64,000 bases of DNA from a virus, in IMG/VR virus record IMGVR_UViG_3300030419_004857, positions 62,001 through 126,000 of that record. One strand, given 5' to 3'. Both the position numbers and the translations under genes were made by a program. This document shows, piece after piece, positions 3,001 to 33,329 of the stretch (its first letter is position 1; the number at the start of each line of letters is the position of its first letter). The notes under the pieces are model-generated. The model worked only from the letters and a program-made list of their open reading frames with translations. It ran no database searches and was not told where the DNA came from.

Positions 3001-6000
3001 GATTGTGGTAAAACCTATAGGATAGATTCTGATTGGCAAAAACTTGACGAATTGCCCGGCGCTGATGAACAGTTTAAAACCTGTTGTAGTTGTGATTGTG
3101 AGCCGGGAGATGTTAAAAAACCATCGTGTGAAAAGGATTTTCCCACGTTAGATGACTTCTTTGCTTGCAATGGCTGTTGTGGAGAACATGACGGAAAGCA
3201 AACCGATTGTGAAAATAATGGATGTGCCTATAATGCCTTAGACGGAAGTTGTAACTTGAAAGATGGCTGTGGTGGAACATGTGGTAATTTGTCATGTGAA
3301 GCTGATGACGCTGGTGGTGGTGGAGAGTGTAGAGCTACATACGGATCTTGTTCTGATATTACAACAGAATCAGCTTGTGATGGTGCAAGCGGGTGTAGCT
3401 GGAGTGAAGTTACGCCGGGGTCGGGATATTATACATGCGGTGGAAACATAAATAATGACATTTGTAATACTTATGATGACCCCGACGACTGTAATGATGA
3501 TGACTACTGCAACTTTGTAAATTTCACTTCTAACACTGGCACATGTAAATGTACCCCCTGTACTGGTTTTCCCGGTAGTAGAGATTTGAAGTGTGAAGAT
3601 CCTTTTGTGTGTGGCGGTGGAAACGGTGGAAATAGAGGCGGATGTACAGACACAAATTCTGCCTATTGTTCGGGGGGAATGGGGTTAGATAATCCAGATG
3701 GACAGGGCTGTGGAGACCCCGGCATTCCGGGCGCTGTAGCTGATTGCGTAATGCCCAAAAGAGAATATCATGAGGGATGTCCCGGTTTAGGCACAATTTC
3801 TTTTGATATGGAGTATAATGGGTCGTCGTGGGTTTCTGACTGGGTTGCAATGAATGATGTGGGTAAAAAACAATGTAAGCTCACTAACTATCCTGATTTT
3901 TGTAATGATGTTTTTTGTATAAAAAATGGAAAGGTTGTTATTCCAGCCGGGGGGGCATCTTGTGAGAGCGTTGGTGGGGAACTTAAGCCGGGGTGTCCTA
4001 ATAAGCCAATCGTAGGTGCTGACTGTGGCGCTTGTAGAGAAAAACAGTTTGATGGATATAATTGTGGGCCAGACGCTGATGACTGGCCTACAGGACAAGA
4101 TAATCATTATATCAGAACTGAAATGTATTGTGGAGATCTTGAGGATCAAGAGGCTCTTGTTAGCCATGCTGGCCCGCCTTATGGTGGATTGGTTTCTGAT
4201 GAACAATATCAGGGCGGATCAATGCATTTAAATGCGTGGATAACGACTTGTAAATATCCGTCTTGCGGACCCGGCAATTCTCCTTGTCCCGAGTCTGGGT
4301 GTTTTGGTGACTGTTCTGCCGCGCAAGATGGCTCTGTTCAACTTGTTACAACTGCCCACATACCCGGTGTAAATTGTGGAGCAAGATCGCCATGTGTAGG
4401 GTGTTGTGCATTTATGGAGCCTTTCTGCACGGTTACAGCGGGTGGGGGTTGGCTTTTCGACACAGAAGATTGCCCCCCTCAGACAAAAGGTTGTGGAATT
4501 CCTTGCGATGGGTCTTGTGAAGATGAATTGTTAACTTTGGTCGAATGCAAGGCTAGCGGGTTTGTTAAAAGTCCAAAAGCCCCGATGATATTTAATGTTC
4601 GGTTTGTTGATCATGGAGGAGAAGACCCAACAACTGGAAAAGTTCCGGGCAAGTTAATTGGAATGACTAACGCTCCTGCCTGTAATTGGCCAGCAGGCAC
4701 AAGTGTTAGTTTGGGTGTTTCAGATAGATTAATAGCAGAAACCGGAGGAGGAAGTGACGCTACGCCAATGTATGGTACAACTACTGATATCCTAGCCCTT
4801 CCTCCAAATTACCCACAGGGCACAGTACTGACTCAGGAGATTCCTATAAGCGAATATGACAATAACCTTATAGAACTGAACGTTGAAGATGTTAGAGCCT
4901 TCATGTCATATTCAGGAGCGTTAGATAGACATCTGTGGAGAAATACTAATACCGAACCGTTCCCGTATGGTAGATCCCCTTGGCCAGTCCTCCACCAAGC
5001 CGATACAGGAAACCCACAGGCTCTGAATAACCTTGAAAGAATAGGCAAAAAGATGCTCAGTGGGAGTGCCGCATCTTATGATCCGCAGAATAAAATTGTC
5101 AATATTGAAAACGTTTATGACGGAAACGGAGTTTTCTCTCATATCCTAGTTACTACAGACAGAGATCATGATCTTATTACAGGCGAAAAGATTATATTAG
5201 ATAGGGCTGAATGCTATGCGGCATCTTGCAGTTGCCCCGCTTATGATCCTGTTTCTGATGTTGGGGGATGCAGAAGAGTCGGGACGGGAACGGTGATAAT
5301 TGACGAGGATACTGAAGAAGCTGCTACCTCAGTTAAAAATGTTGACCAAGTCGGATGTCAGGCTCTGGGTGGGACATGGACTCCGTCAACGAATAAACTA
5401 ATATCGTGTCCGAAGGAGTGCGAGGTAAATGGGTGGTTTGATGAGGCTCCATGTGATCCGAATAAGGATAACAAACCGTGTAATTCTCCCAATTGTAGAA
5501 AGCCCCCCGGAGAACAACAAAAGGTGTGTTACGGCTGCGCTGGCTCTGTTGATGAAACCGCCATTGTTGCTGGTGTAGAAGAAGATCCTATAACCGATGA
5601 TCTCAACGGTTCCTATGTTGTCAAATTCATCTCCAGCAGATCATTTTCTATCCATTATGAGAAATATTTAGATTTTGATCAATACGGTTCGCAAGCTATT
5701 GGCTATGATCCTACAACCAATAACACTACCGGATTGGCTGCAAATACACTCAATGATTCCGATACGTGGAATGATAATGTAAAAGGAACACCGTGGGGCC
5801 ATGAAATTATGGTTGGTCCAGCGGTTGGTCCATTTGTAGATAAAGTAATTGATTGGTCTGGCACAGAGACTGCTGGAGGTGCTAGGTGGACACGTCACGC
5901 AGGAACTTTTAATGTCGTATTGCAAAATTTCGAGTATGTTGATAAACCGGGCACTGCATGCAGACAGGGTAATAGTCAGAATCCGGTAAATCTAGAATGG

Positions 6001-6162
6001 GATCTATTTTTTGAAAATGGATGTTGTAATAATAGACAACCTCCAAGAAACTTCGGATGTGAAGATAAGTGCTATCAGGGTGGAGGGCCAATGATAATCG
6101 ATTGGGTGGATAAAGATCAAGATAGAGGAAAAGCTGCTATTCATATAGCTGTAACAGAATAA
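1..6162 (+). CDS. Giant Cys-rich virion/tail-associated protein, 5' end outside the window
   Basis: The reading frame is open from base 1, so the gene starts left of the window; at least 2053 residues are visible. Cysteines are extremely frequent throughout (well over 100 by eye), often as CxxC, CC and CxC, with short modules of the form C-x-C-x-W (near 430-500 and 3360-3440). Two regions (about 1690-2010 and 5130-5680) resemble the 'HGL ... G' beta domains found repeatedly in phage tail proteins (FCCH-like): motifs TNHGL and VKGVLGN, then DRDHDL and ITGEKI. That makes a tail or fibre role likely. No transmembrane segment is seen; the N-terminus is missing. It is followed after 14 bases by a second Cys-rich gene. 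A host-binding or envelope-penetrating role is inference. Confidence 0.75.
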   Translation, partial: DCSYSGQEGTTRNRPIFHPTTGQLIGHSTGPPGGTRRNDLNMPDGDPAGGRCLQDGDTPNQFMACRSYTDANFNNLYGQVNFEQCHNGFCIDGAGNVLGYDKRACCAGGFTWKYPRCLDSSGNPVGGSCAGDALDGSDCSTKSECDCTLAEGCAWVEEFDEWECSAQYKSSGYTWSHSWITDPSSADVNECCGGQIISDKAPSHQPAVSGGGGEGSLEKAKGQLTCITPYKEYILIPGGAPNFQYGCKAVDNPTPEVRNDLGKAGSAGVFTLIIRECNYNDNCLDSPSAQDDSLIGKETVLYIPIDQMINCSDFRLPFDQRTAELGNPAGFYPEDVNWCNDPDENRDGTADINGEGCSRFLYQESGVIRDRTIYENGAHQLHQLNLQAQPFKATESNQLTAKSLDQARADQAAHYGCVCGAGVDCPDCLMDINHGLAYWFENDFVGTDSACSQARTQIKGIIDGAASAREVWSCHDDCGDPSGYLHYWSGGLEGIIYSSSLVGDSGLYTGRLGYWGATGLYPANIYTPYQPENSTPPISHTLDNCYGSHRGGRSGVVEFASNTSPIVIKSTNHGLVDDDFISVKGVLGNFSANTLTLAEWKAISWQDKLGDGCDGEECPKIFNPPGLCETAPFDTSGLASGSISLPLWVVEIVDKDHFLLKDCNGDYSDGTIDFAPQCDSTFTCVDYLANTVEVCPCNTLDNVPDVISSTAVDLLTDEATCKTYGYCQIVSGYPDPNTMMTKDDCITLAKKYSLYDGGGTALNPAFPGSCTDGCNGSSVAASDYQDCIAKTNSGCPPNGWANPNYHSCVSVVDNVANFDACWSGHDWKPASTADPYKDKVGNWPACPFTGEWTLCDQLNHDTCTIREMSGSRDGTDQYRLGYDHTSKIREDLANGYYVQIDQTEVCPVCCDHYMPKSLTATISSMSSQSLNDRYCQTDCNGNLPPVVATGYKVFPGADEPYVCEPDQNGNYGLGCEDGYTGGTYCCDCVSTPEGAIAGCFDCGKTYRIDSDWQKLDELPGADEQFKTCCSCDCEPGDVKKPSCEKDFPTLDDFFACNGCCGEHDGKQTDCENNGCAYNALDGSCNLKDGCGGTCGNLSCEADDAGGGGECRATYGSCSDITTESACDGASGCSWSEVTPGSGYYTCGGNINNDICNTYDDPDDCNDDDYCNFVNFTSNTGTCKCTPCTGFPGSRDLKCEDPFVCGGGNGGNRGGCTDTNSAYCSGGMGLDNPDGQGCGDPGIPGAVADCVMPKREYHEGCPGLGTISFDMEYNGSSWVSDWVAMNDVGKKQCKLTNYPDFCNDVFCIKNGKVVIPAGGASCESVGGELKPGCPNKPIVGADCGACREKQFDGYNCGPDADDWPTGQDNHYIRTEMYCGDLEDQEALVSHAGPPYGGLVSDEQYQGGSMHLNAWITTCKYPSCGPGNSPCPESGCFGDCSAAQDGSVQLVTTAHIPGVNCGARSPCVGCCAFMEPFCTVTAGGGWLFDTEDCPPQTKGCGIPCDGSCEDELLTLVECKASGFVKSPKAPMIFNVRFVDHGGEDPTTGKVPGKLIGMTNAPACNWPAGTSVSLGVSDRLIAETGGGSDATPMYGTTTDILALPPNYPQGTVLTQEIPISEYDNNLIELNVEDVRAFMSYSGALDRHLWRNTNTEPFPYGRSPWPVLHQADTGNPQALNNLERIGKKMLSGSAASYDPQNKIVNIENVYDGNGVFSHILVTTDRDHDLITGEKIILDRAECYAASCSCPAYDPVSDVGGCRRVGTGTVIIDEDTEEAATSVKNVDQVGCQALGGTWTPSTNKLISCPKECEVNGWFDEAPCDPNKDNKPCNSPNCRKPPGEQQKVCYGCAGSVDETAIVAGVEEDPITDDLNGSYVVKFISSRSFSIHYEKYLDFDQYGSQAIGYDPTTNNTTGLAANTLNDSDTWNDNVKGTPWGHEIMVGPAVGPFVDKVIDWSGTETAGGARWTRHAGTFNVVLQNFEYVDKPGTACRQGNSQNPVNLEWDLFFENGCCNNRQPPRNFGCEDKCYQGGGPMIIDWVDKDQDRGKAAIHIAVTE

Positions 6163-19865: not shown

Positions 19866-21511
19866 CTGCCAACCCTGTTATATCTTTGTGTTTCCCATTT
19901 GTTTCTATGATTACAGAGTTGTGCAGCCATATTGTAAGCCTTCTCTTTGTCAAAAGATTCATATTGAGGCTTAACAAATTGATAAGAATCTTCATTTACA
20001 TAAGTATCTCCGGTTCCTTGTATGAACATCCCGTAATTTAAGTCTCGTATCATTCTAGCTTCCATATAACTGTTTAGTTTCTCTGGGTCGCCTAGAACAT
20101 TGATAATTAACCATTGTACGTATTCTCGGGGGCTTAGGTTTTCGGGAACCTGCGTTAAGGGCTGGTGGATTACAGGTGGGGACAGCCATGTTTCCTCTGA
20201 TGGGGGAACAATCACGCTATCAAAATAATCTTCCCACTTTTTAGCGGTGGCGTCCCATTGGTAATGTTTGTCAAAATTTGATTTGGTTTTATCTGATAAT
20301 TTCTTTCTATCTTGTTCTGATAGATTAAAAAACTCGTTCATTTTAGCGGCGGTATAATCATTGTCTGGCACAGCCCTGTTGCACCCAGTTTCCAATTCTT
20401 GGTACACAGCCTTCACTTTTAGAGGAATCCCCTCCAGTTTACGCACCACGCTGGACATAGCGGAATAATCAATGCTCATAACCGGAATAGCACAAGCCGC
20501 AGCTTCTACTTGGGGTAAACCAAACCCCTCACTGTTTGCGTATTGGATATATAAGTCGAATGTATTTGTTATCTTGGAGAGATCTTGGTAAGATACCCCT
20601 TTTTGCACGTTGGACAATCCTGCGGCATATGAATTACAACGAACGCATTTGGCTCTAGCGTCCGAAAAGAACATCGGAAAAACATGTTCGCAGTGCTGAC
20701 AAACATAAGTAAATATAACTTTGCTACTGAGTCCATACCTATTTATTAACTTTGGTATATCCCATCCCAAGTCTGGGTAACTGGTGTGGCAGTAAAGGTA
20801 AACGTCGGATCTACCAGAAACGTTTAAGAATTTTCTAAATGCCTCAAATAGATCTGGAAATAGTTTCCGTCTCTGGTTTCTCATTATTGTTCCCACAATT
20901 TGCATAGATGGATCAAAACCCATACTTATCTTGTGGTTAATTTTATTTTCCACCGGGGTATATGCGGCGTTGGCGGAAGGAGGGGCAGAACCCAGACATT
21001 TGATTACATTATTGCTTTCTCGTTTAAGTAGGTCTCGGCCCCAATCTGAATAGGCAAAAACTGCATCGGCATTAGAGAAGGTAGATAGCCACTGTTCGTT
21101 TTGTGGTTCAGCGTCTACTGTTGGCATAATTGCCCAATTGAAAAGTCTTCTAAATGGAGACCTTTCTTGGTAATCTATCATCCAAAAATCTCTGATATCA
21201 AAAACGATATCAGGAAGAAAATCTAGAAGGACATTTTCAAACTGCCATTCACCAAACTGATTTGTTGGAACAGAGTTGTATGTATCAACTTCCTGTTTGT
21301 TTGTTAAGTCTGGGAGATTACCATAAAAACCCCAAGGGATTTCTTTAGCTCTTGGGTCCGTATCGTCTCCATAACTAGCAAATTCAGCCAGATCATACTT
21401 TCCAGTATTAAAAAGCCTTCTCATTACTTCTCTACCGTAAGTTGCATATCCAGTATTAAGATATGTAGCTTCGCAACAAAGAAGAATCCTTTTTTTTCTA
21501 TTCATTGGCAT
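19862..21511 (-). CDS. Large GT-B glycosyltransferase with an inserted zinc ribbon
   Basis: 549 residues, longer than the GT4 norm (350-420). The N-terminal lobe opens with LLCCEATYLNTGYATYGREV. The donor lobe has MRNQRRKLFPDLF and ANSEGFGLPQVEAAACAIPV (E-x7-E). Between them, about residues 270-300, sits CQHC...CVRC, a zinc-ribbon insertion not standard for the family. A C-terminal extension of about 90 residues (after 460) is of unknown role. The insert may bind protein or nucleic acid, or stabilise the acceptor loop. Overlaps the sigma-factor gene by 14 bases. Confidence 0.85.
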   Translation of the reverse strand: MPMNRKKRILLCCEATYLNTGYATYGREVMRRLFNTGKYDLAEFASYGDDTDPRAKEIPWGFYGNLPDLTNKQEVDTYNSVPTNQFGEWQFENVLLDFLPDIVFDIRDFWMIDYQERSPFRRLFNWAIMPTVDAEPQNEQWLSTFSNADAVFAYSDWGRDLLKRESNNVIKCLGSAPPSANAAYTPVENKINHKISMGFDPSMQIVGTIMRNQRRKLFPDLFEAFRKFLNVSGRSDVYLYCHTSYPDLGWDIPKLINRYGLSSKVIFTYVCQHCEHVFPMFFSDARAKCVRCNSYAAGLSNVQKGVSYQDLSKITNTFDLYIQYANSEGFGLPQVEAAACAIPVMSIDYSAMSSVVRKLEGIPLKVKAVYQELETGCNRAVPDNDYTAAKMNEFFNLSEQDRKKLSDKTKSNFDKHYQWDATAKKWEDYFDSVIVPPSEETWLSPPVIHQPLTQVPENLSPREYVQWLIINVLGDPEKLNSYMEARMIRDLNYGMFIQGTGDTYVNEDSYQFVKPQYESFDKEKAYNMAAQLCNHRNKWETQRYNRVGR

Positions 21512-22031
21512 TTCGCAATGTTTGAATTATGCTTTGTAATTTTAAATCAACAACCCGTTTAGAACAGTGTAATTCTTCTGCGATTTCTTTGTTGGTGTGG
21601 TTTTGAAGTTTCAGTTGGAGAATAAATTTCTCGTTTGCTGTGAGATAGTCTGGGATAAATTCCATGATTTTATCTTTGTCAAAAAACTTTTGATCTCCAG
21701 CCGCAGAATCTAACAGATTGGTATCGTATATAATCTTTGGCTTTTTTCTTTTGGGGTCTTTTCTTTTGTAGTTTAGAAATGCATTTTTTATGCACAAAGT
21801 GGCAAAAGTGGAGAACTTAGATTTTGTTTCATCATATTTTCTTATGGCTTTCAATAGAGCTATTAGTCCAACCTGAATGAAATCTTCAAGGTTAGATTTA
21901 TTGTCGTCACCTAAAAAAGAAAGAGCCTGAGAAACGACTAGTCCATAATGTTCATGAACCAGTTCGTTCTCAAGCCCTTCTCCGTTTTTTATTATCACTT
22001 CATCATTCATCTGTTGTGTCTGACACGGCAT
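21498..22031 (-). CDS. Small sigma-70-like RNA polymerase sigma factor
   Basis: 177 residues (an alternative start at Met 8 would give 170). Region 2 is clear: DFIQVGLIALLKAIRKYDETKSKFSTFAT, with core-binding and -10 recognition helices. Region 4 is at the C-terminus: TANEKFILQLKLQNHTNKEIAEELHCSKRVVDLKL, a helix-turn-helix. Regions 1.1 and 3 are lacking. It would redirect the host RNA polymerase to phage promoters. A second sigma factor is encoded at 52630-53115. It lies just downstream of SSB in the same operon. Confidence 0.9.
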   Translation of the reverse strand: MPCQTQQMNDEVIIKNGEGLENELVHEHYGLVVSQALSFLGDDNKSNLEDFIQVGLIALLKAIRKYDETKSKFSTFATLCIKNAFLNYKRKDPKRKKPKIIYDTNLLDSAAGDQKFFDKDKIMEFIPDYLTANEKFILQLKLQNHTNKEIAEELHCSKRVVDLKLQSIIQTLRNANE

Positions 22032-22407
22032 CTAGAACAGTTTCTTTTGAATCTTCTGTCTTGGTGGTGTCACCATAATTATTATTGAATAACTTAAATT
22101 CCTTAACACGGAATCTAATTTGGAACTTCTTGTTGCCCTCTTTATCTACCCAAGAATTATTGCGCGCAGAAGCAACTAAATCAACAATGTCACCCTTCTT
22201 GCAGTATTTATTTAATGTGGTGGCTCCTGAATCCCATGCTTCAAAATCGAGATAGCTTACTGTCTTCTTTTTGTCACCATTCTTTTCTCGTCTGTATTCA
22301 CTCACTGCGAGAGTGAAAGTAAGAAGATCCGTGTTTTCTAGTTTAATAAGCTTAGGATCACCAGCAAGACGACCAATAAATCTACAGTAGTTAGAAATAG
22401 TATTCAT
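22003..22407 (-). CDS. ssb: Single-stranded DNA-binding protein
   Basis: 134 residues, one OB fold (FIGRLAGDPKL, LLTFTLAVSE, YLDFEAWD, KGDIVDLVASARNNSW). The C-terminus is acidic (ETVLDAVSDTTDE) but lacks the DDIPF tip used to recruit bacterial partners, so partner binding is probably phage-specific. The ATG has AAGGATTG upstream and a TATAAT promoter 33-38 bases before it. It overlaps the sigma gene. It protects ssDNA for the split polymerase encoded immediately upstream. Confidence 0.92.
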   Translation of the reverse strand: MNTISNYCRFIGRLAGDPKLIKLENTDLLTFTLAVSEYRREKNGDKKKTVSYLDFEAWDSGATTLNKYCKKGDIVDLVASARNNSWVDKEGNKKFQIRFRVKEFKLFNNNYGDTTKTEDSKETVLDAVSDTTDE

Positions 22408-22424
22408 ATCAATCCTTCCAATAG

Positions 22425-22445
22425 AGTCCAGTTTTCTATATTATA
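22425..22445 (-). promoter_or_regulatory. Putative promoter of the ssb/sigma/glycan operon
   Basis: On the minus strand TATAAT (22445-22440) is followed 7 bases later by ACTGGACT (22432-22425) around the expected start site. The promoter at 52595-52616 has the same TATAATATA and ACTGGACT 8 bases later. It lies in the 60-base gap between the polymerase C-half and ssb, the only clear gap in this region. Confidence 0.5.
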
Positions 22446-22467
22446 GCTGTTTTATACAAAAATCGCA

Positions 22468-24039
22468 CTAAATTTGAAAAACATCCTCCACGACCATGCC
22501 GTCGTGATCAGATTTTCGTGATGTGGCACACGATAATATCACAGTGTTTTCACCATATAAAATCCCCTTATATTTTTGCAATTGTTCTGGGAAGATAGTA
22601 ACAGAATCTACGCTTCCCGTTTGGTCTTCGACACACAAAAACGCCATATCCTTACCCTTAGACTTACCCTTTTTAATCGTATACTTCCTGATGTCAGTTA
22701 GAGTAACGGCAAGTTTCATTTTTCCCTGTTTGCCGTCTAGAAACTCTTTGCAGGTAGTGTCTGCCATGCTAGTGTCGCATGATTCCACTTTGGAATAAGT
22801 TAGAGGTACTCCCAGATAGCCCTCCTCTGTTCTGGTTATCCATTCTGGATCGTCATCCAGAGGATACGATGGTGACTTTGTATGAAGAATTAGATCTTCA
22901 ACTATTGCGCACCTGTTTACATTGGAAGTCCCGCCACCGTTTTTCTTAGTCGGGGCTAGTGCGGTTAAAGCTTCCAAGAGACTTGAATAATTTGACTGTT
23001 TATCAGAAACCCAAGATCGTTCTAACTTTGTTAATTTTTTCCAAGTGTCAAATTCGTCTAACATTTTGGTTCGACTGTTATTGGTATTTGGAACTATGCC
23101 TAAAGAGATCATAGCAACAACAATCGAAGAATTAGCATTCATGGAGAGGTTGACTAGAAACTCGTACCAAGACCAATCTTCTACCTTTTTGTTTAGCAGC
23201 TTTTCGGCCTTTTCGGATTCTTCTTTTAGCTTTATAATTTGTTTTGAGCCTATAGATTTAATGTTTTTAAACCCAAAATGGATTTTATCACCAATAATAA
23301 CAGTGTCTTCGTTCATAGCTCCTAACGAAGGAGGCTGAATGAAAATGTCATTAACCTTCGCGTCAATTACCAGTTCCTTTACTTCCTGCTGTGGATCTTG
23401 TTTTCCGTCAGAGAAGTGCAAATACTGGGAATAGAACTCAAGTGGAAAATGTGCTTTAGCATAAGCAGACCAGTAAGCACAAATAGCATAAGAAACAGCA
23501 TGGGACTTATTAAAAGCATAACGACTTGATTTTTCAATCCAGCCGAATATCTCCTCCGCTGTTTCTTTAGGAACAATATCTTCATTTTCTGATCCTTCAA
23601 GAAACCTCTTTTTAACTTCAATCATCAAGTCAGCCTTTTTCTTGCCGATTGCCTTCCTTAGATCGTCGGCTTCTTGCAAATTGAACCCTGCAATTCTTTG
23701 GGCAATTTCCATGGACTGTTCTTGGTATACCAAAACCCCCTGCGTTTTTTCCAAAATTGGCTCTAACGCATCGTGCAGATAAGTTACCTGCTCTTTGCCA
23801 TGTTTGCGATCAACATAATGCTGCGTCATTGATTTGCCGTCAACAATTGCTTTGAGACACCCCGGACGTAGCAACGCAACCAAAGCGGCTAACTCTTCAA
23901 GATTTCTCGGTTTAAGCCTTTTTGCCCAAGATTTACCCAGACTACTCTCTAACTGAAAAACCCCCTTGGTTCTGCCCGCACAAATAAGATCCCAAGCCTG
24001 AGCATCTTCATATCCAATGTTGCTTACATCAAATTTCAT
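22468..24039 (-). CDS. dnaE: DNA polymerase III alpha subunit, C-terminal half (fingers, HhH, OB)
   Basis: 523 residues that begin exactly where the fingers region of DnaE begins: GVFQLES (about residue 26), LVALLRPGCL, YVDRKHGKE, VLVYQEQSMEIAQRIAGF, LRKAIGKKK, YAFNKSHAVSYA. Then come the (HhH)2-like IKSIGSKQI and a C-terminal OB fold (RKYTIKKGKSKGKDMAFLCVEDQ, VTIFPE). The palm and PHP portions are encoded separately at 24954-26858. ATG 24039 has AGGAAAAA upstream. No intein sequence precedes the first domain. The two halves presumably associate in trans. Confidence 0.93.
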   Translation of the reverse strand: MKFDVSNIGYEDAQAWDLICAGRTKGVFQLESSLGKSWAKRLKPRNLEELAALVALLRPGCLKAIVDGKSMTQHYVDRKHGKEQVTYLHDALEPILEKTQGVLVYQEQSMEIAQRIAGFNLQEADDLRKAIGKKKADLMIEVKKRFLEGSENEDIVPKETAEEIFGWIEKSSRYAFNKSHAVSYAICAYWSAYAKAHFPLEFYSQYLHFSDGKQDPQQEVKELVIDAKVNDIFIQPPSLGAMNEDTVIIGDKIHFGFKNIKSIGSKQIIKLKEESEKAEKLLNKKVEDWSWYEFLVNLSMNANSSIVVAMISLGIVPNTNNSRTKMLDEFDTWKKLTKLERSWVSDKQSNYSSLLEALTALAPTKKNGGGTSNVNRCAIVEDLILHTKSPSYPLDDDPEWITRTEEGYLGVPLTYSKVESCDTSMADTTCKEFLDGKQGKMKLAVTLTDIRKYTIKKGKSKGKDMAFLCVEDQTGSVDSVTIFPEQLQKYKGILYGENTVILSCATSRKSDHDGMVVEDVFQI

Positions 24040-24048
24040 AAATTTTTC

Positions 24049-24732
24049 CTACAGATGAATTCTACCGTCTGCAAACGCTTGTTCAAATTTAATCTTTGGG
24101 GACATTTTTCGATAGAGCTTCATAAAAGCTATTAGTAGATTTGCCGTATCTTTTACATCTTGTAGGGCGTCGTGAGCATTATCCTTTGGAACGCCCAACA
24201 AATCTCTCATCGAATCCATGCTGATAGATTTAACATCGGAATTATTTTCGAACCAAAGCCACACAGTTTCCATCAAGTCAATCTTATGAATTCTATTGAA
24301 CAGAACCTGTTCCCCCCTCTTTTTATCAATAGGTCCATATTCAGAACACATTCTTTCAACTATGTGCATATCAAAGCCGTGAATATTATATCCGGCCATT
24401 ACTGGCGCGTAGTAAGGAGTTTTCTTAAAGTTGTATTTATTTACAAAATTAGTAAATTTGTTCCATACGGTTTTAGGTAAGGGGGCTTTTGCTAAAAGCT
24501 TTCTTTCCTTTTTGGTCACCGCCAACGCCTCATCTTCTATAGGGTCTAAACCTGCGGCCACCGCCTTCTCATCATCCAAGATGGGGCGAATTTCGCTATT
24601 AAAGTAGCCACCCGGCTGCACGGTCAATTTTCTTCCGTGAATCGCCACGGCGGCAACTTGTGTGGGTTGAGTTTTGTGAGGGTTTCTGCTCCCGGTTTCA
24701 AAATCGACAACAATAATATCCCGGTAATTCAT
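24049..24732 (-). CDS. DnaQ-like 3'-5' exonuclease (DEDDh)
   Basis: 227 residues. Exo I: VVDFETG (Asp, Glu). Exo II: GYNIHGFD (Asp). Exo III: NAHDALQDVKDTANL (His, Asp). All five DEDDh residues are present. It lies between the two halves of the polymerase, 9 bases from each neighbour, so it is very likely the proofreading or epsilon-like subunit. A pol III exonuclease of about 180-240 residues is normal; no clamp-binding motif is obvious. Confidence 0.92.
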   Translation of the reverse strand: MNYRDIIVVDFETGSRNPHKTQPTQVAAVAIHGRKLTVQPGGYFNSEIRPILDDEKAVAAGLDPIEDEALAVTKKERKLLAKAPLPKTVWNKFTNFVNKYNFKKTPYYAPVMAGYNIHGFDMHIVERMCSEYGPIDKKRGEQVLFNRIHKIDLMETVWLWFENNSDVKSISMDSMRDLLGVPKDNAHDALQDVKDTANLLIAFMKLYRKMSPKIKFEQAFADGRIHL

Positions 24733-24741
24733 GGCGTTCCT

Positions 24742-24957
24742 TTATTTTTTGAGTTTATATTTGATTTCTAGAAATTTACTGATGGCCCTGTCAATATTAT
24801 AATAAAATTTACTAAATTTGTATTTATGATTGTCAGAATGTACCTGATAAACATCCTCTCTTGGAACTATACGTTCTATACAACAAATGCATACATCGTC
24901 TACTTCTTCGTAATGTCCAAGCTCCAACTTGCGCCTTATTTTTTGTCTAACTGTCAT
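24742..24957 (-). CDS. Small basic Cys protein inside the polymerase operon
   Basis: 71 residues: MTVRQKIRRKLELGHYEEVDDVCICCIERI then a Lys/Tyr-rich helix to KYKLKK. CxCC at residues 23-26 suggests metal binding or a redox site. It overlaps the end of the polymerase N-half by 4 bases (ATGA) and precedes the exonuclease, so it is co-translated with the polymerase set. It could be a bridging subunit for the split enzyme, but there is no homology evidence. Confidence 0.6.
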   Translation of the reverse strand: MTVRQKIRRKLELGHYEEVDDVCICCIERIVPREDVYQVHSDNHKYKFSKFYYNIDRAISKFLEIKYKLKK

Positions 24958-26858
24958 TGGTTTGGTTCCAGTACACTTCTAATTCCCATGATTTTGTCCA
25001 ATAGAGAAACTCCTAAAATATCGAATTTAACATGACCCATTGCTTCTAAATCGTTCATTTCCATCCCCGCTATCTTTTCAGACCCCTTTTTATCTCGTAC
25101 CATGGGGCAGACTTTATCTAAACTATTAGATGAGATAACCACCCCAGCCGCATGCTTTCCTTGAGATTTAAATGTACCCTCAATTCTCATGGCCTGTTCA
25201 AACAGCTTTGAATAGTCCCCCTCCAAAGTTCCATCATCGTTTAGTCTACAATAATCTCTTAACGTGTCGGGCTGATTTGCTAAAGCCCATTCGATGACAG
25301 ACTGTCCCCCCATGTCAGCTAGCTGGTCTGAGATTTCATGTTCATGAGGTAGACTTTTAGTGATCACGTTCATCTCATCGTATGAACACGCCTGATTCAT
25401 TCTAAGCACTTCTTTTAGGGCGCTTCGACCCTGCAATCTTCCAAACGTAACCATTTGCCCGACCTTGTCTCTTCCATATTTTTCTCTGATATAGTCGATG
25501 GTTTCATCGCGCTTGGTGGCCGGTACATCTATATCAATATCGGGCAAAGAGATATGGTCTTCTGTGTTTCTTCCGGCGTTATAAAATCTTTCGAAAATTA
25601 AACCGTGTTCTATAGGATCAACCTGTGTAACGCCTATGAGATAAGAAACCAAACATCCTGCGGCAGACCCCCTCCCCGGACCCGGAAGCCAATCGTTTTC
25701 TTTTATATTTGCTACGATATCTCTAACGATTAAAAAATATCCAGATAGATTGGCATCACTGATTACCTCTAACTCTTTAGTGATTCTGTCCACATAAATA
25801 TTTTCATTCGGACCAAGTTTGCTGGTGTTGCTTAACTTTGCCTTCCAGCCCTCTCTGCACAACTGTCTGAGATAGGTTTCTTCTTCCACGTCTTCTGGAC
25901 ACTTGAACTTTGGAAGAGTCGGAGATCCTAAGATGTCATATTCTTCACACATGTCTGCTATTTGCATTGAATTCTTTAGTTCAGATTCTGTATGCAACTT
26001 AGACATTTCTTCATATGTCGGGATATGAAAATTGTTCGACTTTAAAAATCCAGAAAATCCCACATCTTCATTGTTGTCCAACTTTCTCTTAATGTCTCTA
26101 AGAGGAGTTTTCATAGCAGAGCATAACAACAATAGGTGGTCGCTAGCATCTTCTTTGGTGGGATAGTGTGAATCTGCCGTTGCGACAGACGGGATAGAAT
26201 ACTTTTTAGAGACGTATCTTAACCCCTGAGCGACCAACTTTGCTGCCGGGGAAACTTCTTCGTCTATACATTGAATTTCGATAAGAAAATTCTCTTTGCC
26301 AAAAATGTCTTTATACAAATTTGCCTGACTAAGAACTTTTGACTCCCAATCTGGATTAATGTACCTTTTAACTTCTTCTTCTGTTGAGGCTTTGTATGCA
26401 GATTTAGGGTCTTCGAAAATACAATTCGCTAACTCACTACCAAGATGACCGCTAAATGCAATTAAGTCTCCGTTCGCGTGCTCTTTTAAAATATCAAGAT
26501 CTAATCTAGGTTTAAAATAAAACAAATCCTCATCGTTACTTCGAGAAGTAATCTCGATTAGATTTTTCCAGCCATTAATGTTTTTTGCCAATACCACCAG
26601 ATGGCTTAGAGATCTATTTGAAACATCTTTAACTGTTGCTGGCTGATCGCTGATATATAGCTCGCATCCCAATATAGGCTTTATGTTCTTGTCCTTCATT
26701 GCTTTTGTAAAGGCTACTGCTCCAGCTATCGTTCCATGATCTGTAACAGCACAAGAATTATATCCTAGCTCAGAACATCTTGAAGCGACTTGTTCGGGCT
26801 TTGAGAGTCCATCCAACAGGCTGTAGTGAGTATGCAAATGTAGAGGTGTCCAATTCAT
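24954..26858 (-). CDS. dnaE: DNA polymerase III alpha subunit, N-terminal half (PHP and palm)
   Basis: 634 residues. The PHP domain has intact metal ligands: HLHTHYSLLDG, AVTDHGTIAGA, LGCELYI, ATADSHY, which suggests an active proofreading nuclease. The palm has LPGPGRGSAAGCLVSYL and PDIDIDVP (two catalytic Asp), and the third catalytic Asp in HVKFDILG near residue 613. The protein stops about 21 residues later, where normal DnaE continues to GVFQLES; that part starts the gene at 24039. The C-terminus (GIRSVLEPNQ) shows no split-intein sequence. Confidence 0.93.
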   Translation of the reverse strand: MNWTPLHLHTHYSLLDGLSKPEQVASRCSELGYNSCAVTDHGTIAGAVAFTKAMKDKNIKPILGCELYISDQPATVKDVSNRSLSHLVVLAKNINGWKNLIEITSRSNDEDLFYFKPRLDLDILKEHANGDLIAFSGHLGSELANCIFEDPKSAYKASTEEEVKRYINPDWESKVLSQANLYKDIFGKENFLIEIQCIDEEVSPAAKLVAQGLRYVSKKYSIPSVATADSHYPTKEDASDHLLLLCSAMKTPLRDIKRKLDNNEDVGFSGFLKSNNFHIPTYEEMSKLHTESELKNSMQIADMCEEYDILGSPTLPKFKCPEDVEEETYLRQLCREGWKAKLSNTSKLGPNENIYVDRITKELEVISDANLSGYFLIVRDIVANIKENDWLPGPGRGSAAGCLVSYLIGVTQVDPIEHGLIFERFYNAGRNTEDHISLPDIDIDVPATKRDETIDYIREKYGRDKVGQMVTFGRLQGRSALKEVLRMNQACSYDEMNVITKSLPHEHEISDQLADMGGQSVIEWALANQPDTLRDYCRLNDDGTLEGDYSKLFEQAMRIEGTFKSQGKHAAGVVISSNSLDKVCPMVRDKKGSEKIAGMEMNDLEAMGHVKFDILGVSLLDKIMGIRSVLEPNQ

Positions 26859-26862
26859 TATT

Positions 26863-27567
26863 CTATATTCCGTCTATTCGATTTCTGTGTTTAGCAATCT
26901 CGTATTGCATAAGAATTCCACCGCGCATGCCATCACTATCCTCTACGAAACTATGTGTTGACCTCTGAATTGCTAGACTGGGCACACAGATATAGAAATT
27001 ATATTGTCTAGCCATCTTCGTTCCTAAAATCCAATCTATGGGACCGATTGGATCGTATGTTACGAGCTTCTCAATTATATTACGTTTGAGAATACATGCA
27101 TGAAAACCCGCATGTCTCTGTGATTGCTCGATCTTGAACTTTTCATACATCTCATAATGCGGCGGGTTTCCACCGTGATACGAACCCAGCCACAAACCGT
27201 CCCATTCTTTGTATTCTATTTGTTGAAGATTTTCTACAAAATCATTGGTGAAGTAAGCGTCGTCTTCTAGAAAGAGCGCATTACTCACCCCTTCTTCCAG
27301 AACAATGTTCATCATTTCTTTATGACATTTCCATGCGTTGTACGCATTGGGACGGTTTACCCATGAATTATGACCAGATGTTAACGGTTTCTCGTTATTA
27401 TCCACCTTGTCATAGACGTGTCCATCTAATGATTGCCCATCGCCAGCGATAAACTTGTGCATGGGTCTACCGAATATGCTCTTTACCTGTTCGTCCAATT
27501 CGGACCAGAGCTTCACCCTCTTATCTAAACACAAACAAATAATCTTATCTATATCTGATATGTTCAT
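26863..27567 (-). CDS. LPS-type glycosyltransferase (family 25-like)
   Basis: 234 residues from ATG 27567, which overlaps the preceding stop as ATGA; an in-frame TTG upstream (27591) is less likely. DKIICLCLDKR opens the fold, ALFLEDDAYF is the GT25 ExDD-type metal-binding motif, and ACILKRNIIEKL and PIDWILG follow. Family 25 adds galactose or other hexoses to lipooligosaccharide. It sits between the polymerase and a FkbM methyltransferase, so sugar genes are interleaved with replication genes. Confidence 0.8.
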   Translation of the reverse strand: MNISDIDKIICLCLDKRVKLWSELDEQVKSIFGRPMHKFIAGDGQSLDGHVYDKVDNNEKPLTSGHNSWVNRPNAYNAWKCHKEMMNIVLEEGVSNALFLEDDAYFTNDFVENLQQIEYKEWDGLWLGSYHGGNPPHYEMYEKFKIEQSQRHAGFHACILKRNIIEKLVTYDPIGPIDWILGTKMARQYNFYICVPSLAIQRSTHSFVEDSDGMRGGILMQYEIAKHRNRIDGI

Positions 27568-28241
27568 CTTATGTAGATCCCATCTCCCCAAGAATGATGC
27601 GCCATGTAAGTGTCTACTCTGTCAAATCCGTATCCCGATAAAAATTCGTCAATCTCGCTCGCTTTAGCTCCTCCTACATAAAGCTCCTCAAAGGCCAACT
27701 CTGTGTAGATAACTTTACAAGAACCTGACTCTAGATATTTTTTCATGCCTTCCAGAGCCTTCATTTCTGCACCCTGCAAATCCATATTCAGGAATTCAAA
27801 GTCTTTTGGATTGAATTCATGCCTCTTGAAGAGGGTGTCCAGTGTAATTGTGTTAACTTTAACCTGAGAAACTTCATCAATATGAGGGTAATATTCTTTG
27901 TGTTTTCCCAAAGAAAGAAGTGATGAACAGCCGCAGTTACCCTGTTCAGGAAAATTATGATAATTTTGACGATCATCAGGATAAATAATTTTAAAATCGA
28001 CCGTGCTATCATCTACATCCGAAATAGCATAATCAAATACATTCTGAAAATTCTCGTCAAAATCATATAAATTTTTACGAATGATAGGTAGCAAGTCTGG
28101 ATTTGCCTCAACCCAAATTACACGATCTATTTCGCAAGCTCTGTACTCATACCTTTCTTCTGCCTTACAGGCTCCTAAATGAATAGCCCCTTTAATGTTT
28201 AGGTTGTAACGACTAATTATGCTTGCTAATGATTCTATCAT
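27564..28241 (-). CDS. FkbM-family methyltransferase
   Basis: About 225 residues, taking ATG 28241; a GTG at 28265 is an alternative. GAIHLGAC (SAM loop), VIWVEANPD (acidic end of strand 2), DYAISDVD, and FLNMDLQGAEMKALEGM are FkbM landmarks (the last equals the DIEGxE motif). The family O-methylates sugars or other hydroxyls. It is coupled by ATGA to the GT25 gene downstream, so the two probably act on the same glycan. Confidence 0.85.
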   Translation of the reverse strand: MIESLASIISRYNLNIKGAIHLGACKAEERYEYRACEIDRVIWVEANPDLLPIIRKNLYDFDENFQNVFDYAISDVDDSTVDFKIIYPDDRQNYHNFPEQGNCGCSSLLSLGKHKEYYPHIDEVSQVKVNTITLDTLFKRHEFNPKDFEFLNMDLQGAEMKALEGMKKYLESGSCKVIYTELAFEELYVGGAKASEIDEFLSGYGFDRVDTYMAHHSWGDGIYIR

Positions 28242-28242
28242 T

Positions 28243-29247
28243 TTACTGTGCCGCCCTTCCACCACCAGCCCCGTATGATCCTATTTTGTCAACATTGCCA
28301 TATTCAAGAACCACTTTGTTTACCCCCTTTTTTCTCACTTCGTCTCTAATATGTTGACACATGCTTTTTTTAGCACCGGATTTGTACGGGGCGCTGAATT
28401 TGCATAATTTTTGACATTTCCAGTGGGTGTTTTCATTTGAAAGGAGTTTAGGATGACTCACATCACGGATATATTTGAACTTTCGTTTTAATATATTCTC
28501 TGCTTTTTTGTAATCAGTGTCATCAAAACACATCGAAAACAATCCGCCATCATTTATGTAAAATATACTTACTGAAAAATCGTAGTCTGGGTACAGATTT
28601 TTTAGGGCGTAGTAGTATAAAAGAAGCTGGGTGTCTTTTTGTAGACTCTCAAGGGTTTTCTCCTCCCCCGTGGCCCAGTTCAGCCTTCTGCCAGTTTTGT
28701 AGTCGATCAACTCGTAGTAATTCTCTTCGTGTTTCACGATTAAGTCAACAGTCCCTTTGATCGCCAAGTTTCCTTTTATGATTTTTCCGCCGATATCGTA
28801 AGAAAATTTGGCCCAAGGCTTATCAATTTCTATATCAAAAAACTTCTCGGTTGCAAACACGTTTTGATTTCTAGGATCTAGGAGTCCATTATTATAACTA
28901 ATGGCCTTTTCCACCCAGCCTGTACATTTCTTAAGTTCAGCCTTACTCAGATCCACATCTGGTTCTAAGTCGGTGTAATAATCAAACGCTTTTTCCGTAA
29001 CTTTTGGAATATTGTCACATTCCTTGAGCGAAAATCTTCCTAACTCGCCATCCCCAAAGCTCTTATTTCCTCTCTGCATGCAAAGCTTTTTATCAGCCAA
29101 TACCTGCAAAGCTTTATGGACGATGGTTCCCATAAGAGCTTTTTTATTTGTTTTATCCTTAAAAGCCAAATTATACTGTAGGAAGTATTTCTGCTCACAG
29201 AAATCCAAAGTACCCAAGCTACTACTTCTGTGATAACAAACTATCAT
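28243..29247 (-). CDS. Cas4/RecB-like PD-(D/E)XK nuclease with Fe-S-type cysteines
   Basis: 334 residues. LGTLDFCEQKYFLQY near the N-terminus gives the first Cys. GTIVHKAL carries the catalytic His, GTVDLI the Asp, and YELIDYKTGR the D-x-K core; QLLLYYYAL is motif QxxxY. WKCQKLCKF and a later Cys complete a four-Cys iron-sulfur cluster as in Cas4 and AddB. It is a phage replication/recombination nuclease lying with primase and recombinase genes. No cas1/cas2 genes or CRISPR repeats are near, so it is not a CRISPR component. Confidence 0.88.
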   Translation of the reverse strand: MIVCYHRSSSLGTLDFCEQKYFLQYNLAFKDKTNKKALMGTIVHKALQVLADKKLCMQRGNKSFGDGELGRFSLKECDNIPKVTEKAFDYYTDLEPDVDLSKAELKKCTGWVEKAISYNNGLLDPRNQNVFATEKFFDIEIDKPWAKFSYDIGGKIIKGNLAIKGTVDLIVKHEENYYELIDYKTGRRLNWATGEEKTLESLQKDTQLLLYYYALKNLYPDYDFSVSIFYINDGGLFSMCFDDTDYKKAENILKRKFKYIRDVSHPKLLSNENTHWKCQKLCKFSAPYKSGAKKSMCQHIRDEVRKKGVNKVVLEYGNVDKIGSYGAGGGRAAQ

Positions 29248-30089: not shown

Positions 30090-30826
30090 CCCCACTCCTT
30101 TAGCGTGTTTAACAAGAGTTTATTAGATTCATCTATACTCATTGAAGAATTATCTATCACACAGTCGAAACCATCATATTCGTTAAGAGCAATTTCGCTA
30201 GCATGTTCATCTTCAAAGGGGTTTCTAGTTAGTCTGATGACTTTTCCACCCGCCTTTTGTAAAGCTTCTACTTCGTTTGGAAATCTACAATCAGCAACAA
30301 TCGCTAACTCTGTACCACTTTTATGAATTCTATCAATACAAGCCGCCGTCCAAATATCTGGTTTAATGGTCCTACAAATATCTGTTCCAAATACTTGCAT
30401 AAATTCTCTGGCTGTTAAATAACCTTCCTTATTCTTAACGCCCGGAATATGCTCCCACTTTATGTTAACAGGGGTGTTTTTGTCATCGTCGGACCCGTGA
30501 CACTGTTCGTAATTTAGGCCAAAAAGACCGATGCATAGCGCTTTTAGTGGGTCTGCAAAACTAAAGGCTTTCACGAATGGCCAGATATTTTGACTAGCAT
30601 ACATGCTAAACTCGTAATCGGTTCTGAACACGTCAATAATTCCAACACCCTCCACCTCCTCCCCTTTCTCGTCCAAGGATGTGGTGTTTACAAGAATTTC
30701 CCCCCGGTCATTCATAAAAAATTTATCAATTATATCATGAAATTTCATTTGATATCCATGAAGAAAATTGGCGCATGTGGTTTTTCCACTTTGCTTAGAT
30801 CCTGATATTCCCAAAATGTGCTGCAT
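30062..30826 (-). CDS. Deoxynucleoside monophosphate kinase (T4 gp1-like)
   Basis: 254 residues. P-loop GISGSKQSGKTT (residues 6-17). AFSFADPLK and the long REFMQVFGTDICRTIKPDIW motif are characteristic of phage dNMP kinases, and VADCRFPNEVEAL is the acid-rich binding segment. It phosphorylates dNMPs (including phage-modified ones) toward the dNTP pool. TAATG coupling to the primase upstream places it in the replication operon. Confidence 0.9.
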   Translation of the reverse strand: MQHILGISGSKQSGKTTCANFLHGYQMKFHDIIDKFFMNDRGEILVNTTSLDEKGEEVEGVGIIDVFRTDYEFSMYASQNIWPFVKAFSFADPLKALCIGLFGLNYEQCHGSDDDKNTPVNIKWEHIPGVKNKEGYLTAREFMQVFGTDICRTIKPDIWTAACIDRIHKSGTELAIVADCRFPNEVEALQKAGGKVIRLTRNPFEDEHASEIALNEYDGFDCVIDNSSMSIDESNKLLLNTLKEWGWLKAKVTK

Positions 30827-31875
30827 TATACTAATCCTTCTAATTGAGGTACAAGTTCTGAGTGAATTTGTTGTATTGTCATCTCTCCGACATCTTTGGT
30901 AGATATTTCCGGGTAAACTATGTGAAACAGCCTCTCACACTTTTTAGTAATAGATTCTTTGGCTTTCTGACCAGCGGAATCGTTATCGCTTAAAATCACT
31001 ACGTTTAAGGCTCCAGAGGTTTCCAAAATTCTTGCCTGTGCATCGCTTAAGCTGGAACCAAACATCCCTACGCTGTTAGTGAGTCCCGCCTCGTGCAGCC
31101 TCCAGACATCTCCCTGTCCTTCGACTAGGATCACACTTCGAGTTTCTCTGATTTTATCTTTAGCCAACCAATACCCATAGAGCCACATGCCGGAATTAAA
31201 ACTTTTGGAATTGATCCATTTTCTTCCATTACAATTTTCCTCCTGTGACCTACCAACACACCCCACCATAAATTGATAGTCATCATCATATACAGGAGCA
31301 ACAACGCGATGTTTCATCTGCTTGGTGGTATCTGTACACACACCCACATCAAATTTTTCCAAAGTTTCTGTTTTGTACCCTCTATTAACATAATAGATGG
31401 CGGGTCTCTGTAGCATCTCTTTAACTTTTTGTCTTGGGATTCCACTAGTAGGACGGGGTTTTTCCTCATAAACATCCCTATAGATTTTTTCAAAATGATC
31501 TTTTGATAGTTTGCTTCCTTCTGTTTTAAGCTCCTGAGACGACGTATTAACAAATTCAATAGCAAATTCTACAGCGTCTTGAAAAGAAACGTCGTCTTCT
31601 TTTTGGGCGCTCAGAATACCTCTGATTAGCCCAATCGGACTGTGAACATATTTTTTTTCACACGAATGAGTCCAGCATCTCCAGCATCCAAAAAAAGAAC
31701 CTCTTTTAGTAGTTATAGTAAACGCTTCTGGATTATCAGCCCCCTCATGTATAGGACAAGATGTAGTTAGACGATCATAGCTTTCTACATACCTTATTCC
31801 AAAATAATCCAAAAGATCTTTCATTTTACAAGCGAGCTTTTCTGATAAAATTGTCAATTCTTTTTGTGTAATCAA
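30826..31875 (-). CDS. dnaG: DnaG-like DNA primase
   Basis: 349 residues, shorter than bacterial DnaG (about 600). Zinc site CPIH...C-W-RC-W-THSC (about residues 40-72). Toprim core: VILVEGQGDVWRL (Glu) and VVILSDNDSAGQKA (DxD-type). The C-terminal helicase-binding domain is missing or very short. It lies directly downstream of the DnaB helicase gene with a 4-base overlap, so the two form the primosome. Confidence 0.93.
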   Translation of the reverse strand: MITQKELTILSEKLACKMKDLLDYFGIRYVESYDRLTTSCPIHEGADNPEAFTITTKRGSFFGCWRCWTHSCEKKYVHSPIGLIRGILSAQKEDDVSFQDAVEFAIEFVNTSSQELKTEGSKLSKDHFEKIYRDVYEEKPRPTSGIPRQKVKEMLQRPAIYYVNRGYKTETLEKFDVGVCTDTTKQMKHRVVAPVYDDDYQFMVGCVGRSQEENCNGRKWINSKSFNSGMWLYGYWLAKDKIRETRSVILVEGQGDVWRLHEAGLTNSVGMFGSSLSDAQARILETSGALNVVILSDNDSAGQKAKESITKKCERLFHIVYPEISTKDVGEMTIQQIHSELVPQLEGLV

Positions 31876-33329
31876 AATGGACTCTCCTCAACACTGCCGC
31901 TGTCTGTTAAAAATCCTTCTTTGTGCTGATTAACACCAGCAGCAACCTCTCTTCTTGTCTCTTTTTCTATGATCTCAGCAGTTGAACCATGCATAGCAAT
32001 ATTGATATAGTCGTATTCTTCGAGACCGGGTCCATGTCTAGATTCAATTGGAATTAATTTTCTGTTTCCACTTTCCCCTTGGTCTTCAGCTATTTCTTCA
32101 TCCGACTTCCGCTTGAAAATTGAAAAACTACTGCACAGCCAAATCAATCTGTCGGACCCACTAACTACATCCGTAGATTCTTTGGTAATGCCGTCTCTGT
32201 TAAGCTGCACAAAAGAAAGGCATGGGCAATCATACTTAACGCAAAAGTTGTGAAGCTCTGTAATTTGAAATCCCAGAACCTGAAACTCCTGCATATTGTT
32301 ATTAATTTTGTCAGAAGTCATCAACTTTAAATAATCATATATAATCATGCAGTCATTTACACGACCATTTTCATCATACCCAACATTTTTTATAATCCAC
32401 CTTCTCATTATGGATAAGGTTTCTTCAAACGGCTTTCCCGCAATAGCTATGTAGCTCAGTGGGGCGTCTTTTAGTTTCTCTACTGCCTGACGAACCCTTT
32501 CTCTGGTTCCAGAGTTTTTAGCAAATGTACCTGCGGCTATATCATTAATATTAACGCCGCTATTTTTTGCTATCAATCTGTTCATATGATCTTCCTTGGA
32601 CATTTCTGTATCAAGATACAATACAGGAATACCAAGCGTTCCGGCAATGTGCAATCCAACATTTCCAGCCAACATGCTCTTACCAACCTTTGGTCTAGCT
32701 GCGATAAGATCTACACACTTTCTTCTGAAGCCACCACCAATCGCTGCGTCATATTTAGCAAAACCACTACTTAGACCCAAAATGTCTGATGGGTTTTCCT
32801 CCAAATGACGAATGTAATCTTCTACCTCGTCACCTAAGACTAGAGGCTTTTCTTCTACAGAACCATTTAAAGATGACGAAAGTTCGAATATAGGGGCTTC
32901 AGCAACGTTGATGATTTCATCAACAGTTTCGTCTCCGGTTACATCTGATATATCGGTTATGATCTGTTTGGCTTGAACGCTTATCTGTCTAGCGATTTCT
33001 AATTTCTTCAGCTTTACAGCGTGATGTCTGACATTCTCTAAGCCAATGTCAACACTAGACATGGCCTTAATGTGACTGCCTGAAATTTGATTTTCAAACC
33101 ACGAATCAAGTCCAAGGTCGTTAGCAGCACTCAGTATAGAGGGTAAATCAACGGTATCGCTATTATCTAGAACCTTTTTCACACACGCATATAAGATCTG
33201 GTTTTCTTCTAAGGTAAACGTATCAACAGTTATTATGTCGTCAATGTCAATGAAAGCATCTGAGCCGTGCTGTAGAATACCGGATAGTACGGCTCGTTCC
33301 GATGCCGAGTTGTTTATCGTTTTTGCCAT
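31872..33329 (-). CDS. dnaB: Replicative DNA helicase, DnaB-like
   Basis: 485 residues. The N-terminal domain SERAVLSGILQHG is the DnaB N collar. The RecA-like ATPase has LGLSSGFAKYD, Walker A ARPKVGKSM, LYLDTEMS, Walker B CMIIYDYLKLM and SFVQLNRDG (arginine-finger region). It unwinds DNA ahead of the fork. It overlaps primase (4 bases) and touches a zinc-finger protein gene upstream (1 base). No inteins were seen. Confidence 0.95.
   Translation of the reverse strand: MAKTINNSASERAVLSGILQHGSDAFIDIDDIITVDTFTLEENQILYACVKKVLDNSDTVDLPSILSAANDLGLDSWFENQISGSHIKAMSSVDIGLENVRHHAVKLKKLEIARQISVQAKQIITDISDVTGDETVDEIINVAEAPIFELSSSLNGSVEEKPLVLGDEVEDYIRHLEENPSDILGLSSGFAKYDAAIGGGFRRKCVDLIAARPKVGKSMLAGNVGLHIAGTLGIPVLYLDTEMSKEDHMNRLIAKNSGVNINDIAAGTFAKNSGTRERVRQAVEKLKDAPLSYIAIAGKPFEETLSIMRRWIIKNVGYDENGRVNDCMIIYDYLKLMTSDKINNNMQEFQVLGFQITELHNFCVKYDCPCLSFVQLNRDGITKESTDVVSGSDRLIWLCSSFSIFKRKSDEEIAEDQGESGNRKLIPIESRHGPGLEEYDYINIAMHGSTAEIIEKETRREVAAGVNQHKEGFLTDSGSVEESPF

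What the first reader, a model, noticed from the sequence alone, without database searches (positions are those of the whole stretch)
22468..26858. DNA polymerase III alpha split into two genes with the exonuclease between them
The PHP and palm half (24954-26858) ends just after the third catalytic Asp motif HVKFDILG; the other half (22468-24039) begins just before GVFQLES. The break lies between palm and fingers, well before the site where cyanobacterial DnaE is split (by family knowledge). Neither half carries intein-like sequence. A DnaQ-like exonuclease (24049-24732) and a 71-residue CxCC protein (24742-24957) are between them. Two gene products must assemble in trans into one polymerase, perhaps with the exonuclease and the small protein as bridge. 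PHP metal ligands look intact, so two proofreading activities may coexist.
Basis: partly seen in the sequence, partly recalled or inferred. Interest (0 to 1): 0.82.

Follow-up and report, generated by a model that had tools for sequence, protein, structure and literature searches.

The report
Phage replicase split into two genes
A large group of uncultured phages carries the catalytic subunit of its DNA-copying enzyme (DNA polymerase III alpha) as two separate proteins, split between palm and fingers with a proofreading exonuclease gene between them; the split arose once and was kept, so the polymerase must work as an assembly of two chains.

Summary
In a 161-kb phage record a DnaE-type Pol III alpha is encoded by a 634-aa gene (PHP, palm, thumb and all three catalytic Asp) and a 523-aa gene (fingers, HhH, OB), with a DEDDh exonuclease and a 71-aa gene between them. 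It is not a local mutation or an assembly error. In IMG/VR, 143 distinct loci have the same break with the exonuclease between the halves; only a 27%-identical relative is intact. The split sequences form one clade apart from intact bacterial and phage DnaE (bootstrap/SH-aLRT 100/100). The halves together restore the normal linker length, carry no intein or intron remnant, evolve under strong purifying selection (dN/dS 0.04-0.05), and are the only polymerase detected in this record. The best reading is a non-covalent two-chain C-family replicase co-translated with its proofreader. The 71-aa gene as a bridge is not supported: that slot holds unrelated cargo in other loci. PHP metal ligands are kept in about 60% of the phages and lost in the rest, while the exonuclease motif is invariant. 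Split phage polymerases are known (T4-type gp43; a minimal PHP-less Pol III alpha in jumbo phages), so this is a new variant. Assembly and activity are untested.

The parts
24954..26858 (-). N-half of Pol III alpha (634 aa): PHP domain, palm and thumb, all three catalytic Asp (D440, D442, D613)
   Evidence: (D440/D442/D613 in 139 of 139 relatives), AlphaFold pLDDT 87.7, pTM 0.88, Foldseek to Taq/Mtb/E. coli Pol III alpha E 1e-46
24742..24957 (-). 71-aa ORF overlapping the N-half stop (ATGA); variable cargo slot, not conserved
24049..24732 (-). DnaQ-like DEDDh 3'-5' exonuclease (227 aa), the constant gene between the halves
   Evidence: DEDDh residues in all 143 relatives (one sequence truncated at its start); dN/dS about 0.013
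22468..24039 (-). C-half of Pol III alpha (523 aa): fingers, HhH region, OB fold; own start codon with Shine-Dalgarno-like GTAGGAAAAATTTATG
   Evidence: AlphaFold pLDDT 82.4; Foldseek full-length to Pol III alpha E 2.5e-23
22003..22407 (-). SSB-like protein, conserved neighbour downstream
   Evidence: PF00436 E 3e-15; present downstream in most related loci
21498..22031 (-). sigma-factor-like protein, conserved neighbour
   Evidence: PF04542 E 1.6e-15
28243..29247 (-). PD-(D/E)XK nuclease, conserved immediately upstream of the N half in most relatives
30826..31875 (-). DNA primase
31872..33329 (-). DnaB-like replicative helicase

Best explanation
This is a natively two-chain C-family replicative DNA polymerase. 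One polycistronic mRNA carries N half, small cargo gene, exonuclease, C half (gene order, overlaps and spacing are shown; the single transcript is inferred from them). The N chain supplies PHP, thumb and the catalytic palm; the C chain supplies fingers, HhH and OB domains (shown by sequence and predicted fold). The two chains bind non-covalently across the normal palm-fingers interface and rebuild one Pol III alpha (inferred). The DEDDh exonuclease, translated just before or overlapping the C half, is the dedicated proofreader (inferred from invariant active site, strongest purifying selection and fixed position). The break arose once in the ancestor of this phage clade (supported by the tree), probably through insertion of a mobile endonuclease or other gene into the linker (inferred).
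For: 143 distinct viral loci with the same break and the exonuclease between; one clade, support 100 and 100/100; catalytic Asp in 139 of 139 and DEDDh in all 143; linker arithmetic 21.5 + 29 aa against 48 aa intact, no room for intein halves; median dN/dS 0.040, 0.048, 0.013 for N, C, exonuclease; no family A or B polymerase and one copy of each half in the record; each half folds confidently alone and matches Pol III alpha; separate start/stop codons, ATGA and short-gap coupling; N half and exonuclease 6 kb apart in two phages, which argues strongly against read-through or bypass. Precedent: T4-type gp43 43A/43B co-purify and are active, Aeh1 NrdA pieces are active (PMC2988022).
Against: No experiment, and no complex prediction could be run here. 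No cultured member is known. No DnaN-type clamp in the record and no QxxLF-like clamp motif in the C half (141 of 143) or exonuclease (142 of 143), so how it becomes processive is open. The record may be incomplete, so another polymerase cannot be fully excluded. The direct link of the exonuclease to the polymerase is only genomic.
Confidence: 0.86

Rival explanations
1. The two pieces are joined after all, by protein trans-splicing, trans-spliced introns or a programmed translational event, giving one alpha chain as in cyanobacterial DnaE.
For: Relatives do carry an intein (L040), an intein-like in-frame insert (L052) and a split intein (L048) in DnaE; cultured phages KLEB27-3, EF1 and Jayan have intron-interrupted DnaE.
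Against: At this break tails are far too short for intein halves; no Rfam match at E<=1 in window 21000-28000; intact genes with own starts lie between, up to 6 kb; in the intron cases exons abut exactly, here both ends are variable.
Confidence: 0.03
2. The split pair is a non-essential or specialised second polymerase (repair or one strand), with replication done by the host enzyme or an undetected polymerase, as suggested for the minimal split Pol III alpha of jumbo phages.
For: Iyer et al. describe such a role for a minimal split Pol III alpha beside family B (PMC7824862); no clamp gene found here.
Against: No family A or B polymerase in the record; genes sit with DnaB, primase and SSB in a conserved replication block; very low dN/dS.
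Confidence: 0.08
3. Assembly error or lone frameshift/decay in this phage.
For: None found.
Against: 143 distinct loci from many metagenomes, same break, purifying selection on both halves.
Confidence: 0.01

Closest known systems
Intact DnaE / Pol III alpha (bacterial and phage, e.g. Taq 2hpi, MTATph1, OzzyJ)
   Same: All domains from PHP to OB, catalytic Asp triad, fold
   Different: One chain; nearest intact sequences about 35% identical; no exonuclease within the gene
Split minimal Pol III alpha of group 2.2 jumbo phages (Iyer et al. 2021, PMC7824862)
   Same: Pol III alpha catalytic parts on two separate proteins expected to reassemble
   Different: That version lacks PHP and other domains, its genes are distantly located, and it accompanies a family B polymerase; ours is near full-length, one operon, the only polymerase detected in this record
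Cyanobacterial DnaE split by a split intein
   Same: Replicative DnaE on two genes
   Different: Break is inside the fingers and rejoined by trans-splicing (own knowledge; PMC3919608 notes the intein split); here the break is upstream, without intein
Genes-in-pieces in T4-like phages: gp43 43A/43B (phage 25, 44RR), Aeh1 nrdA
   Same: Split phage replication enzyme working non-covalently, shown biochemically (PMC2988022)
   Different: Family B polymerase or RNR; insert is a homing endonuclease or spacer; not described there as fixed over a large clade
Intron-interrupted phage DnaE (KLEB27-3, EF1, Jayan)
   Same: Annotated as two Pol III alpha genes with something between
   Different: Introns, group I-like: exons abut in KLEB27-3 and Jayan; Rfam gpI E 0.005 and 0.0007 for KLEB27-3 and EF1, none for Jayan

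Membership tests
C-family DNA polymerase (DnaE type) | PHP + Pol III alpha palm + fingers domains in the usual order | tested here: met
   PF02811, PF07733, PF17657 over cut-off on two ORFs
C-family DNA polymerase (DnaE type) | Three catalytic Asp | tested here: met
   D440, D442, D613 in 139 of 139
C-family DNA polymerase (DnaE type) | Single polypeptide | tested here: not met
   Separate ORFs in 144 loci
Split-intein DnaE (cyanobacterial type) | Intein N and C fragments at the break | tested here: not met
   N tail at most 43 aa, no intein domain
Intron-split phage gene | Exons abut, group I/II core between | tested here: not met
   Own start/stop codons, no Rfam hit at E<=1
Minimal split Pol III alpha of jumbo phages | No PHP, distant genes, beside family B polymerase | tested here: not met
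   PHP present, one operon, no PF00136 (definition)
Genes-in-pieces (non-covalent split enzyme) | Two chains co-purify and are active together | not testable with these tools
   needs the bench
DEDDh exonuclease (DnaQ-like) | D-x-E, D, H-x4-D motifs | tested here: met
   D10, E12, D121, H187, D192; all 143, one sequence truncated at its start

The most novel reading that the evidence does not exclude
The exonuclease is a third structural core subunit that holds the palm chain and the fingers chain together (an obligate three-chain replicase), which would explain why its gene stays between the halves in 143 loci, overlaps the C-half start in many close relatives, and is the most constrained of the three.
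Probability: 0.2. Interest if true: 0.82.

Novelty: new variant of a known kind. Interest (0 to 1): 0.64.

Why it matters
Split C-family replicases are known as intein-joined pairs or a minimal PHP-less jumbo-phage version. Here a near full-length one, the only polymerase detected in this record, stays in two pieces across a diverse clade of uncultured phages. It makes testable whether the palm-fingers interface alone can hold a replicase together. The clade also holds a natural experiment on proofreading: the DEDDh exonuclease is constant while the PHP site is intact in about 60% and decayed in the rest. Gene callers that expect one DnaE will mis-score these phages.

Tried and rejected
Introns at the break: no Rfam match. 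Cultured two-gene DnaE (KLEB27-3, EF1, Jayan) looked like the same thing but are introns (Rfam found no intron core in Jayan, but its exons abut). L147, a Clostridia MAG flagged as split, breaks elsewhere, with overlapping frames, and looks like a frameshift. Bacteroides phage SJC03 has a similar exonuclease, but its neighbours look terminase- and ligase-like and its DnaE is elsewhere in one frame. No cultured phage with the same break was seen among those inspected. L086-like relatives in IMG/VR: none found. Bridge role of the 71-aa protein: rejected by its replacement with unrelated genes. Dassa 2009 and Kazlauskas 2016 are not in the library, so their content was not checked.

Full report
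What was checked. The window lies at 62001-126000 of a 161,265-base virus record. The 634-aa ORF at 24954-26858 has PHP and Pol III alpha palm domains, the 523-aa ORF at 22468-24039 has the fingers domain, and the 227-aa ORF between is an RNase_T/DnaQ-like exonuclease. Aligned to Taq Pol III alpha, the N half runs to residue 631 and the C half starts at 643. By E. coli numbering the break is just before residue 584, past the third catalytic Asp and before GVFQLES.

It is not a lone event. Searches of IMG/VR with each half and with alignments and frame analysis gave 143 distinct loci in which both halves are separate ORFs with the exonuclease between them (one of the 143, L085, is a contig in a Flavobacteriales MAG), one locus (L086, in a Lokiarchaeota MAG) split without the exonuclease between, and one intact distant relative (L060, about 27%). 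Cellular contigs fetched with the same profile were intact in 75 of 80 cases. In a tree of palm plus fingers, the split sequences are one side of one branch with SH-aLRT 100 and bootstrap/SH-aLRT 100/100 after removing long branches and thinning the rows. The simplest account is one origin and stable inheritance.

It is not spliced. The N chain ends 15-43 residues (median 21.5) after KFD; the C chain starts a median of 29 residues before FQLE; intact proteins have a median of 48 between. Nothing is lost and nothing the size of an intein half is added. Rfam finds no intron at E<=1 in window 21000-28000. In the window the N stop overlaps the next start (ATGA), the exonuclease has its own Shine-Dalgarno-like sequence, and the C half starts 9 nt after the exonuclease with its own; in many close relatives the C start lies inside the exonuclease 3' end (-20 nt). 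In two phages about 6 kb lie between the N half and the exonuclease, metabolic genes in the one read in detail. For contrast, three cultured phages annotated with two alpha genes (KLEB27-3, EF1, Jayan) are intron cases; in KLEB27-3 and Jayan the exons abut at a conserved motif. Rfam supports a group I core in KLEB27-3 and EF1 and found none in Jayan.

Both halves are functional genes. Catalytic D440, D442 and D613 are invariant in 139 N halves; DEDDh is invariant in the 143 exonucleases, one of them truncated at its start. Median dN/dS over 14 close pairs is 0.040 (N), 0.048 (C) and 0.013 (exonuclease). AlphaFold models are confident for each half alone (pLDDT 87.7 and 82.4; pTM 0.88 and 0.64), and both match Pol III alpha in the PDB. 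The record shows no family A or B polymerase, a single copy of each half and no DnaN-type clamp. The region lies in a replication block with DnaB, primase, PD-(D/E)XK nuclease, SSB and sigma factor.

Proofreading. The PHP ligand set (nine positions; five His, three acidic, one Cys in Mtb DnaE1, PMC5636811) is kept in 7-9 positions in 85 loci, the window included with His in place of Cys, and in three or fewer in 53; 47 loci lack most of about residues 100-235 of the PHP region. The PHP state needs at least three changes on the tree. Barros et al. linked PHP decay to a separate exonuclease in bacteria (PMC3666897); here the exonuclease is constant and the PHP varies.

The slot. The gene between N half and exonuclease is variable: the 71-aa family (48 loci; elsewhere in 8; not found on the locus in 87), a 59-aa CC family, HNH endonucleases, uracil-DNA-glycosylase-like, FkbM, epimerase and others (several named from sequence appearance). 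Related loci also carry an intein with HNH (L040), an intein-like in-frame insert (L052), a split intein with a nuclease (L048, a three-piece DnaE) and LAGLIDADG inserts before PDIDID (L058, L061). The gene is thus a frequent target of mobile elements, which makes an insertion origin of the break plausible but unproved.

Known precedents. Non-covalent split phage enzymes are established (gp43 43A/43B co-purify and are active; Aeh1 NrdA; PMC2988022). A minimal split Pol III alpha without PHP, on distant genes beside a family B polymerase, was described in jumbo phages (PMC7824862). I found no description of the present arrangement in the papers held, but key papers (Dassa 2009; Kazlauskas 2016) are not held.

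What is shown and what is inferred. Shown: the split, its conservation, single clade, lack of splicing signals, selection, domain content. Inferred: assembly in trans, replicative role, proofreading by the adjacent exonuclease, origin by insertion. Not known: host, clamp, and any benefit of the split.

Noticed in passing
L342:2211-8112 (a similar 6 kb gap in L341, not read): About 6 kb cassette of metabolic genes between N half and exonuclease in a related phage: glyoxalase-like, aldehyde dehydrogenase, amidinotransferase-like, aminotransferase, UDP-glucose dehydrogenase-like, saccharopine-dehydrogenase-like; looks like amino-acid (lysine) catabolism. Named from sequence appearance only.
   Followed up: no
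L048:10515-13340: Three-piece DnaE: besides the palm-fingers break, a split intein at SFNK/SH in the fingers with a nuclease ORF (DUF559/NUMOD3-like) between.
   Followed up: partly
L040:10624-12975 and L052:9500-11866: C half interrupted near residue 60: in L040 by an in-frame intein with HNH (Pfam), in L052 by an intein-like in-frame insert not tested with Pfam.
   Followed up: partly
L058:8263-9223 and L061:7560-8801: N half interrupted just before the catalytic PDIDID motif by a LAGLIDADG ORF; no Rfam intron match, so the way it is spliced or split is open.
   Followed up: partly
L086 (SHMW01000005.1, binned as Lokiarchaeota): Deep-branching phage-like replication block with the same DnaE split but DUF4326 and another ORF in place of the exonuclease; possible virus of an Asgard archaeon or misbinned phage.
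   Followed up: partly
47 loci such as L193, L198, L220: Most of about residues 100-235 of the PHP region missing, although PHP is said to be always present in C-family polymerases.
   Followed up: partly
window 124-6162: 2012-aa ORF on the opposite strand with no Pfam match.
   Followed up: no
window 26863-28265: A 242-aa ORF with no Pfam match (looks glycosyltransferase-like) and an FkbM methyltransferase sit just upstream of the N half in this phage; not found there in the close relatives examined.
   Followed up: no
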